This document shows positions 6,394 through 8,777 of a DNA stretch of 64,000 bases, in pieces (positions within the stretch are counted from its first letter, which is position 1; every line of letters starts with the position of its first letter). The position numbers and the translations under genes were made by a program. The notes below the pieces were generated by a model. It worked only from the letters and a program-made list of their open reading frames with translations. It was not told where the DNA came from and ran no database searches. The DNA comes from Bacteroidales bacterium. Lineage in GTDB: Bacteria > Bacteroidota > Bacteroidia > Bacteroidales > UBA932. The DNA is taken from assembly GCA_017469845.1 (NCBI GenBank), contig JAFUFP010000041.1:62001-126000 (forward strand), in the 5' to 3' direction.

Positions 6394-6876
6394 TTACTCG
6401 GCAAGAAGATCCGCTATTCTCTTCTCGAGAGCCTCGGGAGTCGTCACGGGCGCGAATCTCTCAACTTTAGAGCCGTCCTTCGAGATGAGGAACTTGGTGA
6501 AGTTCCATTTGATGGCATTTCCGAGGAATCCCTTGGTGGCTGATTTGAGATATTTGTAGATGGGATGAGCATCATCGCCATTTACATTTATCTTCTTCAT
6601 CAAAGGGAATGTGACTCCGAAATTGAGTTCACAGAACTGGGCGATTTCGGAATCCGAACCGGGCTCCTGATGAGCGAACTGGTCGCAAGGGAAACCCACT
6701 ATTACCAGGCCCTGGTCCTTGTACTTCTGATAAAGAGCTTCAAGACCTTTGTATTGGGGAGTGAAACCGCACTTGCTCGCCGTATTCACGACAAGAAGCA
6801 CTTTACCTTTATACTGGCTGAAATCAACTTCACGACCTTTGTTGTCGAGAGCGTTGTAATCGTATATCGTCGCCAT
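6394..6876 (-). CDS. Glutathione peroxidase family (thioredoxin-dependent) peroxidase
   Basis: 160 residues, full length for bacterial GPx. Peroxidatic Cys36 sits in NTASKCGFTPQ, Gln70 in FAHQEPG and the tetrad Trp in WNFTKF. A second Cys (Cys82, in QFCELNFGVTFP) is in the position of the resolving Cys, so the enzyme is most likely a two-Cys, thioredoxin-reduced peroxidase rather than a true glutathione enzyme. It has no signal peptide and is cytoplasmic. It is the first gene of the leftward operon with ohrR. Its promoter -7 box lies 28 nt upstream and abuts the left end of the IS110 element, which may have changed its upstream regulation. Confidence 0.95.
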   Translation of the reverse strand: MATIYDYNALDNKGREVDFSQYKGKVLLVVNTASKCGFTPQYKGLEALYQKYKDQGLVIVGFPCDQFAHQEPGSDSEIAQFCELNFGVTFPLMKKINVNGDDAHPIYKYLKSATKGFLGNAIKWNFTKFLISKDGSKVERFAPVTTPEALEKRIADLLAE

Positions 6877-6903
6877 AATGTCCGTTTTATTGTGTTGCGT
6901 TTA

Positions 6904-6934
6904 CAAATATAAGGACCACAAGCGACTTTTGCAA
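6904..6934 (-). promoter_or_regulatory. Promoter of the peroxidase-ohrR operon, next to the IS end
   Basis: Read on the minus strand: a perfect -7 box TATATTTG (6904-6911), with a TTGC -33-like element (6931-6934) 19 nt upstream. If the proposed IS left end at about 6914 is right, the -33 element is supplied by the insertion sequence, so this would be a hybrid host/IS promoter. Confidence 0.6.
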
Positions 6935-7075
6935 TTCGCTTCCCCGAAAGAGTTGAACAAAAGGGCCCCCGTGCAGCATTGTCGCTAAGGGAAGGTCTGG
7001 CGAGACGGGGCCTTCGATGTCGCTTTTGGTGGGTGTTGAATGTCTTCTCTTCGGAAATTCCTATCTTGCAAAAAA

Positions 7076-7249
7076 GGAAGGCTGGAAAGGTGCAGTGAAG
7101 CCGAATTTGAATTAGCGGTCTAATCCCTCGAATATAAGATGGCTCCTGGGGTCGAGTCCCCGATAGTGCAGGCGAAGATGCATAGCATCCGGTCCGCGAG
7201 TAGAAAAATTCAATGAAGAGTCTCCCCCGGGGCATCCTTCCAGCCTTCC
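7076..7249 (+). ncRNA. Candidate IS110 bridge RNA
   Basis: GGAAGGCTGGAA (7076-7087) is perfectly complementary to TTCCAGCCTTCC (7238-7249), and two more pairs form after a bulge. This closes a 174-nt domain, about the length of the described IS621 bridge RNA (~177 nt). Inside are hairpins ATTAG-CGGT-CTAAT (7111-7124), GGGG-N6-CCCC (7148-7161) and GATGC-ATA-GCATC (7177-7189). A -7-like TATCTTGC (7062-7069) is placed to start RNA at about 7076. Possible guides: AATATAAG (7131-7138) equals host sequence 6906-6913, and AGTAGAA (7199-7205) equals the right end at 8746-8752. Location and pairing are seen directly; the function is inferred from the family. Confidence 0.55.
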
Positions 7250-7271
7250 ACAATTTAAGCGTTCCAAAGTT

Positions 7272-8750
7272 ATGCAAAGAGACGGTAAAATCAAAAAATT
7301 CGACGAGGCTCTGCGGAAGGGTCTCGTCAACACGGTGGAAGACGTGGAATCTTACAAGCTCAGCATCTGTCACCCCAACAGCGCGGGCATCGACATCGGC
7401 TCCAGGGAGAATTACGTTGCGATACCTCCTTCGGTCGCCAAAGAACTCGGAGTCAGCGTGGTGAGGACCTTCCCCACGACCAGTTCCGGCCACTACGAAT
7501 GCGTGGAGTACCTCGTCGACTGCGGGGTGACCCACGTGGCGATGGAGTCGACGGGACACTACTGGCAGACGCTCCGCAACGCCCTCGAGCAGCACGGAAT
7601 AGAAGTGGAGGTGGTGAACCCCCGTCACTTCAGGATGGTGCCGGGGAAGAAGACCGACGTCCAGGACTGCCAGTGGCTGCAGCTGCTGCACATGTACGGT
7701 CTCCTGAAGGGTTCATTCATCCCAGATGAGGAGATCCAGATGCTGCGCACCCTGAACCGGATGCGGCGCAAGATCATCGAAGAGATCACCAAGCAGGTGA
7801 ACCGCATGCAGAAGGCTCTCGTGGGGATGAACATCATGCTCGGGAACGTCGTCAGCGACGTCACGGGTAAGACCGGCATGGCCATCATCTGCGCCATCCT
7901 CGACGGCGAACGCGACCCTTTCAAGCTGGCGGAGCTCCGGGACGGGAGGTGCAAACGCAGCGAGGCCGAAATCGCCGAGGCGCTAAACGGGAACGGCCGC
8001 AAGGACCTCATGTTTGAGCTGGCGTTCGCCAAGGAAAATTACGAGCACCAGATGGCGTGCCTGGAAATTCTCGACAAGGAAATCGTCAAGATGGTGGAGT
8101 CGCTCCCCGACGCCAAGCCCCTGGACGAGGACGTGGACCCCGATCCCAAGGGCGGCGATGAGGCCCAAAAGAAGAAGACCGACCGCAGGAGGGCGGGGAA
8201 AAACTCGCTCCGAACAGATGTGAACATGGAGGACCTGCTCGCAAGGAAAACCGGCACGAGGATCACGGATCTCGACGGGTTCGGTGTGTCAACCGTGCTC
8301 ACGCTGCTGTGCGAGGTCGGGAGGGATCTGAGCAGGTTCCCGGACGCCGCACACTTCGTGGCTTACCTTGGGCTGGCACCACGGAACAAGATCACCGGCG
8401 GAGTGCTCCTGTCGTCGAAAACGGACAGGAATAAGCATCCAGCCGCGATAGCCCTGAAGTCGGTGGTGCCATCGCTCTCGCTGACCGATGCTCCATTGGC
8501 ATCTTTCTATCACTCCGTCAGGGGAAGAAGCGGGACAGGAAAAGCCATAACCGCGGTAGCAAGAAAGTTGGCCATCCAATATTACATGGCACTATCATAT
8601 GGCGTCGCCTACGTCAAGAAGGGGGAACAATTGCGAAAAGAGAATTCAGAAAAACGCAAGCTGGCCAAGTTTTTAGCCACGGCTCAGAAGCTCAATATTC
8701 CAATCGATTATGAAAAAATGCAGAATTGTTGCGATGCATTTGTTCAGTAG
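7272..8750 (+). CDS. IS110-family transposase (DEDD recombinase)
   Basis: 492 residues. The N-terminal RuvC-like DEDD domain shows Asp41 (AGIDIG), Glu92 (AMESTGHYW) and Asp129/Asp132 (KTDVQD). A long helical region follows, then a charged low-complexity insertion (~290-320, PDPKGGDEAQKKK), then the C-terminal Transposase_20-like domain with LxGFG (~340) and GLAPRNKITGG (~375-385), the region that carries the catalytic Ser in this family. IS110 recombinases act with a bridge RNA to join donor and target at a short core. All key residues are present and the frame is intact, so the element may be active. Third codon positions are markedly G/C-rich compared with neighbours. Confidence 0.93.
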   Translation: MQRDGKIKKFDEALRKGLVNTVEDVESYKLSICHPNSAGIDIGSRENYVAIPPSVAKELGVSVVRTFPTTSSGHYECVEYLVDCGVTHVAMESTGHYWQTLRNALEQHGIEVEVVNPRHFRMVPGKKTDVQDCQWLQLLHMYGLLKGSFIPDEEIQMLRTLNRMRRKIIEEITKQVNRMQKALVGMNIMLGNVVSDVTGKTGMAIICAILDGERDPFKLAELRDGRCKRSEAEIAEALNGNGRKDLMFELAFAKENYEHQMACLEILDKEIVKMVESLPDAKPLDEDVDPDPKGGDEAQKKKTDRRRAGKNSLRTDVNMEDLLARKTGTRITDLDGFGVSTVLTLLCEVGRDLSRFPDAAHFVAYLGLAPRNKITGGVLLSSKTDRNKHPAAIALKSVVPSLSLTDAPLASFYHSVRGRSGTGKAITAVARKLAIQYYMALSYGVAYVKKGEQLRKENSEKRKLAKFLATAQKLNIPIDYEKMQNCCDAFVQ

Positions 8751-8777
8751 AAGTTCTTTTTGCGATAGTTTCCATTC

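What the first reader, a model, noticed from the sequence alone, without database searches (positions are those of the whole stretch)
7076..7249. A 174-nt closed RNA fold in the IS110 left end: candidate bridge RNA
A perfect 12-bp complementarity (7076-7087 with 7238-7249) closes a domain of the size described for IS110 bridge RNAs, with at least three internal hairpins and a -7-like box (7062-7069) placed to start at its 5' edge. It sits in the ~360-nt non-coding left end before an intact DEDD transposase. This would be a bridge-RNA system in a Bacteroidales host, with a long-form transposase (492 aa, charged insertion).
Basis: partly seen in the sequence, partly recalled or inferred. Interest (0 to 1): 0.85.

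Follow-up and report, generated by a model that had tools for sequence, protein, structure and literature searches.

The report
IS110 bridge RNA aimed at promoters
A small mobile DNA element in a Bacteroidales genome carries the gene for a folded guide RNA whose two guide stretches match the element's own right end and the host's promoter "-7 box", so the element appears to be aimed by RNA at the start of host genes.

Summary
In detail: 7076-7087 and 7238-7249 are perfectly complementary and close a stable 174-nt fold. (1) A covariance model built only from other IS110 left ends finds window 7084-7241 as its sole hit in 64 kb (E 5e-4, rough); the family's helices covary strongly. (2) A second copy and an empty site give IS = 6913-8750, core AA, right end 0 nt. 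(3) Loop 1 holds AAUAUAAG (7131-7138), equal to the DNA left of the insertion; loop 2 holds AGUAGAA (7199-7205), equal to the element's right end. Across 67 relatives (53 for loop 2) such guides match their own flank or right end far better than those of other elements. New points: the target is the Bacteroidota -7 promoter box (TAnnTTTG), abutting four of five insertions in this genome and that of the closest relative; the guide order is the reverse of that reported for IS621 and ISEc21; about 70-bp non-coding derivatives (MITEs) also occur. The RNA itself and its activity are untested. New variant of a known kind.

The parts
6913..8750 (+). IS110-group insertion sequence, 1838 bp, without its core
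   Evidence: Exact 141-nt overlaps with a second copy split over contigs C43 and C30; core from the empty site of a derivative; the core of this very copy is inferred
6904..6912 (+). Left target CAAATAT plus core AA (6911-6912); on the minus strand TATATTTG, the -7 box of the gpx gene that starts at 6876
   Evidence: promoter consensus from PMC7366714
8751..8752 (+). Right copy of core AA
6913..6963 (+). Left-terminal segment that is kept, about 90% alike, in three MITE-like derivatives
6952..6963 (+). Subterminal inverted repeat, left copy (GTTGAACAAAAG), against 8737-8747 (CATTTGTTCAG)
   Evidence: Sequence
7062..7069 (+). Imperfect -7 box TATCTTGC, candidate promoter of the RNA
   Evidence: Sequence; position matches perfect TAnnTTTG in 19 of 47 Bacteroidota relatives
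7076..7249 (+). Bridge RNA; the conserved family core is 7084-7241
7076..7093 (+). Closing stem, 5' side (pairs with 7232-7249)
   Evidence: closing stem covaries in relatives
7099..7144 (+). Target-binding stem-loop: stem 7099-7103/7140-7144, apical hairpin 7111-7124
7131..7138 (+). Left target guide AATATAAG, equal to 6906-6913
7145..7231 (+). Stem enclosing the donor loop (7145-7151 with 7225-7231)
7177..7189 (+). Apical hairpin of the donor-binding loop, GATGC-ATA-GCATC
   Evidence: homologous hairpin covaries in relatives
7199..7205 (+). Left donor guide AGTAGAA, equal to the right end 8746-8752
7272..8750 (+). DEDD recombinase, 492 aa; its stop codon is the last base triplet of the element

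Best explanation
The 174-nt fold is the bridge RNA of an IS110-group insertion sequence. It is transcribed from the left end and bound by the element's DEDD recombinase. [quoted passage not shown] Its second loop (AGUAGAA) base-pairs with the element's right end in the excised circle. The recombinase then joins the two at a 2-bp AA core, so the element lands immediately upstream of, and keeps intact, the -7 box of a host gene. Shown here: element ends, homology of the structure, family covariation, both guide matches, promoter-box targets. Inferred: transcription, protein binding, recombination, and that the ~70-bp derivatives are moved in trans by the same kind of machinery.
For: Fold more stable than shuffles. 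Model R2, built without the window, has one hit in 64 kb, 7084-7241, 26.6 bits, E 5e-4. Family helices covary: 97.7% of cells paired, covariation 0.489 against 0.217 shuffled; with the window included 94.2% and 0.664 against 0.200, on an alignment fitted to the structure. Loop-1 guide against own flank: 34% of 67 elements have exact matches of 9 nt or more, 2.9% of mismatched pairs. Loop-2 guide against own right end: 58% of 53 have 8 nt or more, 10.6% of mismatched pairs. In the window both guides lie in the predicted loops in the right order; 0 of 5000 shuffles hold both. Ends and core from a second copy and an empty site. Four of five insertions abut TAnnTTTG with a gene start 20-99 nt on.
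Against: The R2 score of the window is the lowest of the 20 sequences and E-values are rough; model R1 missed the window. The window's donor match is only 7 nt and ties with a chance match. No convincing right-target or right-donor guide in the window. No expression data. The promoter of the RNA is an imperfect -7 box.
Confidence: 0.92

Rival explanations
1. The fold is a cis-regulatory leader or attenuator of the transposase mRNA with no guide role.
For: It lies directly upstream of the start codon (22 nt), and a role of small RNAs in recombinase expression was proposed for ISPpu9 (as cited in PMC11208160).
Against: A leader does not explain why the variable loop stretches track each element's own flank and own right end.
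Confidence: 0.04
2. It is a bridge RNA, but the promoter-box target is accidental: the guide reads an AT-rich word that happens to occur at promoters.
For: Only two full copies, three MITEs and one relative were seen; one MITE lies elsewhere (TTATTTTTAT). Insertions sharing a guide are not independent.
Against: CAAANNTA occurs at 3.4e-4 per base, so 4 of 5 gives P about 6e-14 under independence. The nearest relative has a different guide (AAAAGUAAC) and sits at another -7 variant, TACTTTTG.
Confidence: 0.13
3. The ~70-bp repeats are host repeats that serve as the target, and the element proper starts near 6963 and ends near 8736.
For: The repeats contain both terminal segments of the IS joined together.
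Against: An empty site without the repeat exists in the second IS110 of the same genome. Both IS copies carry the same variant of the left segment, unlike the repeats. The transposase reading frame would end in host DNA.
Confidence: 0.03

Closest known systems
IS621 bridge RNA system (IS110 group; PMC11208160, PMC11208158)
   Same: Upstream ncRNA of about 175 nt, target loop before donor loop, left guides equal to left target and left donor, 2-bp core, DEDD recombinase, targets a functional or repeated host signal
   Different: Left guides lie 3' of each apical hairpin instead of 5'; one long-range stem closes the whole RNA; core AA; 492-aa protein against about 328; target is a -7 promoter box instead of a REP
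ISEc21 seekRNA (IS110 family; PMC11187229)
   Same: NCR upstream of tnp; RNA regions matching the target
   Different: ISEc21 has the bottom-strand match 5' of the top-strand match; here the bottom-strand match is 3'
IS1111 group (ISEc11, ISPa11, ISKpn4; PMC11187229)
   Same: Order of the strand matches (top-strand complement first, bottom-strand match second); TG variant of the SG motif is known there
   Different: RNA is upstream, not downstream; no near-terminal 11-13 bp sTIR with 7 bp and 3 bp extensions
IS110-proper subgroup with long transposases (395-455 aa; PMC11187229)
   Same: Protein length class; relatives found here in many phyla carry the same RNA
   Different: The window element is divergent (36-42% aa to full-length relatives; 54% to a partial one) and has a -7-box guide

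Membership tests
IS110-group element with bridge RNA | Recombinase with DEDD RuvC-like domain and Tnp_20 domain | tested here: met
   PF01548 and PF02371 above cut-off, NF033542, IS621 and ISCro4 as best solved relatives; the conserved Ser is Thr here, as in 12 of 54 relatives examined
IS110-group element with bridge RNA | Long left end upstream of the gene and short right end | tested here: met
   Left end 359 nt, right end 0 nt
IS110-group element with bridge RNA | Structured RNA homologous to left-end RNAs of relatives | tested here: met
   R2 hit 7084-7241, E 5e-4; covariation
IS110-group element with bridge RNA | Loop complementary to the target | tested here: met
   AATATAAG, 7131-7138 against 6906-6913
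IS110-group element with bridge RNA | Loop complementary to the donor end | tested here: met
   AGTAGAA, 7199-7205 against 8746-8752; short (7 nt)
IS110-group element with bridge RNA | Right target and right donor guides | tested here: inconclusive
   Right-target signal in the family (p 0.0006), none convincing in the window; no right-donor signal
IS110-group element with bridge RNA | RNA is made and bound by the recombinase; RNA-directed recombination | not testable with these tools
   Needs small-RNA sequencing and assays
IS621/ISEc21 guide layout | Left (bottom-strand) guide 5' of the apical hairpin and of the right guide | tested here: not met
   Left guide lies 3' of the hairpin in the window and in the family
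IS1111 group | RNA downstream of the transposase and 11-13 bp sTIRs close to both ends | tested here: not met
   RNA upstream; right end 0 nt; the left copy of the inverted repeat is about 40 nt inside the left end

The most novel reading that the evidence does not exclude
A clade of IS110 elements in Bacteroidales has bridge RNAs whose target guide is the host's -7 promoter box, so that they insert just upstream of -7 boxes in one orientation, leave the box intact and may supply a replacement -33 region. They do so with a guide layout reversed relative to IS621, and they spawn ~70-bp RNA-less, protein-less derivatives that move in trans.
Probability: 0.55. Interest if true: 0.75.

Novelty: new variant of a known kind. 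Interest (0 to 1): 0.6.

Why it matters
Bridge RNAs are known in IS110 elements, but this family shows the same logic with the left guides on the other side of each loop, in an RNA closed by a long-range stem, across many phyla. That gives a second scaffold to compare with IS621 and possibly to program. A bridge RNA aimed at the promoter -7 box is a clear case of an RNA-guided element choosing a functional host signal, and it makes insertion-site choice in Bacteroidales predictable from sequence. The MITE-like derivatives suggest that the ends alone can be mobilised in trans.

Tried and rejected
tRNA-like feature suggested by GGGGTCGAGTCCCC: ARAGORN finds none. Known Rfam family: none. Reading GGUCC (7191-7195) as a right donor guide: it falls in the family's conserved CCCG anchor, and the family shows no right-donor signal. 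First model R1 (Bacteroidota only): no hit on the RNA in the window; the broader R2 finds it. Host-repeat reading of the short repeats: rejected by the empty site. Exact empty site of this copy in relatives: the ferritin-gpx spacer is too diverged to fix the core. No relatives in the viral contigs. Pattern search for the left end in 150 genomes of the genus: only the own genome. A literature search for IS110-derived MITEs returned only papers on arachnids.

Full report
Observation. The two 12-nt arms 7076-7087 and 7238-7249 are perfectly complementary and the stem continues inward (7089-7093 with 7232-7236). The 174-nt fold is more stable than all 200 dinucleotide shuffles (z -2.95). ORF 7272-8750 encodes a 492-aa IS110 transposase with both Pfam domains, named 'IS110 family RNA-guided transposase' by NCBIfam. 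Its best solved relatives by sequence are the IS621 and ISCro4 recombinases. Rfam and ARAGORN give nothing in the window.

Ends of the element. The same genome holds a second copy cut by contig breaks. C43 ends with an exact 141-nt overlap (window 6901-7041) after an unrelated left flank. C30 begins with an exact 141-nt overlap (8614-8754) before an unrelated right flank. Three further ~70-bp repeats (C67, C17, C8) join the first ~50 bp of the left end to the last ~15 bp of the right end. One of these sits in a stretch also present, without the repeat, in the left end of a second IS110 of this genome (C24/C22). The comparison gives empty ATAAAAATAACAAATGTGCC and filled ATAAAAAT-AA-[GAACCAC...TTCAGTAGA]-AA-CAAATGTGCC, hence a 2-bp AA core. 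The repeats are therefore MITE-like deletion derivatives of the element and not its target. Applied to the window: core AA 6911-6912 and 8751-8752, IS 6913-8750, left end 359 nt, right end 0 nt. In some related species ferritin and gpx are direct neighbours without the IS, as expected for an insertion between them.

Is the RNA conserved? The left ends of relatives (36-47% aa identity, several phyla) hold a common RNA. An alignment of 23 Bacteroidota-type left ends gives 32 pairs, 17 with compensatory changes by RNAalifold. With the structure counted directly, 97.7% of cells pair, 18 pairs have changes on both sides, covariation is 0.489 against 0.217 shuffled, and slid controls are at most 0.126. 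The closing stem itself covaries in all five of its pairs. Model R1 from this alignment finds the RNA upstream of most other relatives but not in the window. Model R2, from 47 relatives without the window, has exactly one hit in 64 kb: 7084-7241 on the + strand, 26.6 bits, E 5e-4. R2 also finds the RNA of the second IS110 of this genome and of the nearest relative L084. E-values of these models are rough by the tool's own statement. The window is thus a divergent member, and its perfect 12-bp arm is a local extension of a shorter conserved closing stem.

Guides. In each loop the family shows an apical hairpin, then a CCCG-like anchor, then a variable stretch. In loop 1 the stretch ends just before a (N)UGG that closes the loop. 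Comparing each element's loop-1 region with its own upstream flank gives exact matches of 9 nt or more in 34% of 67 elements against 2.9% of mismatched pairs, and the longest matches sit mostly at the variable stretch. Examples are TTGCGAGCC, TAATCAGCGT, TATTCAGCAT and AAAAAAGTAT. Loop 2 compared with the sequence around the transposase stop gives matches of 8 nt or more in 58% of 53 against 10.6% of mismatched pairs. In the window the loop-1 stretch is CGAAUAUAAGA-UGG, matching 6906-6913 (AATATAAG), and the loop-2 stretch is CCGCGAGUAGAAAA, matching the right end AGTAG-AA. None of 5000 shuffled RNAs carries both in order. The 5' side of loop 1 complements the right target across the family (permutation p 0.0006; the same test on DNA 15-60 nt further on gives p 0.2-0.6). 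No such signal was found for the right donor side, and none is convincing in the window itself.

What the target is. The guide reads CAAATAT-AA, the reverse complement of TTATATTTG, allowing one G-T wobble. The Bacteroidota housekeeping promoter has TAnnTTTG at -7 and TTTG near -33 (PMC7366714). Both full copies abut TATATTTG, with gene starts 27 and 20 nt downstream. Two of three MITEs abut TAACTTTG, with likely gene starts 50 and 99 nt downstream. The third MITE lies inside another IS end. The word CAAANNTA occurs at 3.4e-4 per base in the window, so 4 of 5 is about 6e-14 if the insertions were independent, which those sharing a guide are not. The nearest relative L084 has a different guide (AAAAGUAAC) and abuts a different -7 variant, TACTTTTG. 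Reading outward from the left end, TTG lies 20 nt from the -7 box in the copies examined; a replacement -33 element is possible but untested.

Mechanism and comparison. Shown: ends, core (from the derivative), homologous covarying RNA, both left guides, promoter-box targets. Inferred from IS621 and ISEc21 work (PMC11208160, PMC11187229): transcription, binding by the recombinase, and recombination of circle and target at the core. It meets the defining features of an IS110-group bridge-RNA element that can be tested by sequence. It differs from the IS621/ISEc21 layout in that the left (bottom-strand) guides lie 3' of the hairpin and the right-target complement lies 5'. This is the order reported for IS1111 seekRNAs, yet the RNA is upstream as in IS110. 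Whether other IS110 members drawn in Fig. 6d of PMC11208160 share this order could not be read here, since figures are not held.

Limits. No expression or activity data. The core of this very copy is inferred. Only a handful of insertions of this clade are known. At the conserved serine position, 13 of 55 proteins including the window's have Thr where 42 have Ser.

Noticed in passing
L080 (C67), L081 (C17), L082 (C8), ~70 bp each: MITE-like derivatives made of the first ~50 bp and last ~15 bp of an IS110 element, lacking RNA and transposase; the three are alike and about 10% different from the full IS.
   Followed up: partly
L081:1464-1735: A second, nested derivative: the left end of the other IS110 of this genome (C24/C22) next to a right-end-like AGAAGAATCC, with the ~70-bp MITE inserted inside it.
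   Followed up: partly
L113 (C24) and L114 (C22): A second IS110 in the same genome (36% aa) with the same kind of RNA; its target guide AAAAAAAG matches its flank GAAAAAAG and its donor guide TATAGAAG its right end.
   Followed up: yes
6913-6945, minus strand: Outward from the left end TTG stands 20 nt before the -7 box of the gpx gene, also in the MITEs; the element may supply a replacement -33 region.
   Followed up: no
L026, L027, L029, L030, L035, L046, L083 and others: Many Bacteroidota relatives sit next to GTTRGGC-like or CGTTNGGC-like words, reminiscent of integron attC sites; their guides end in ATTC or ATCC.
   Followed up: no
7272-8750: The conserved C-terminal serine of IS110 recombinases is a threonine here (GLAPRNKITG) and in 12 of 54 other relatives examined.
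   Followed up: partly
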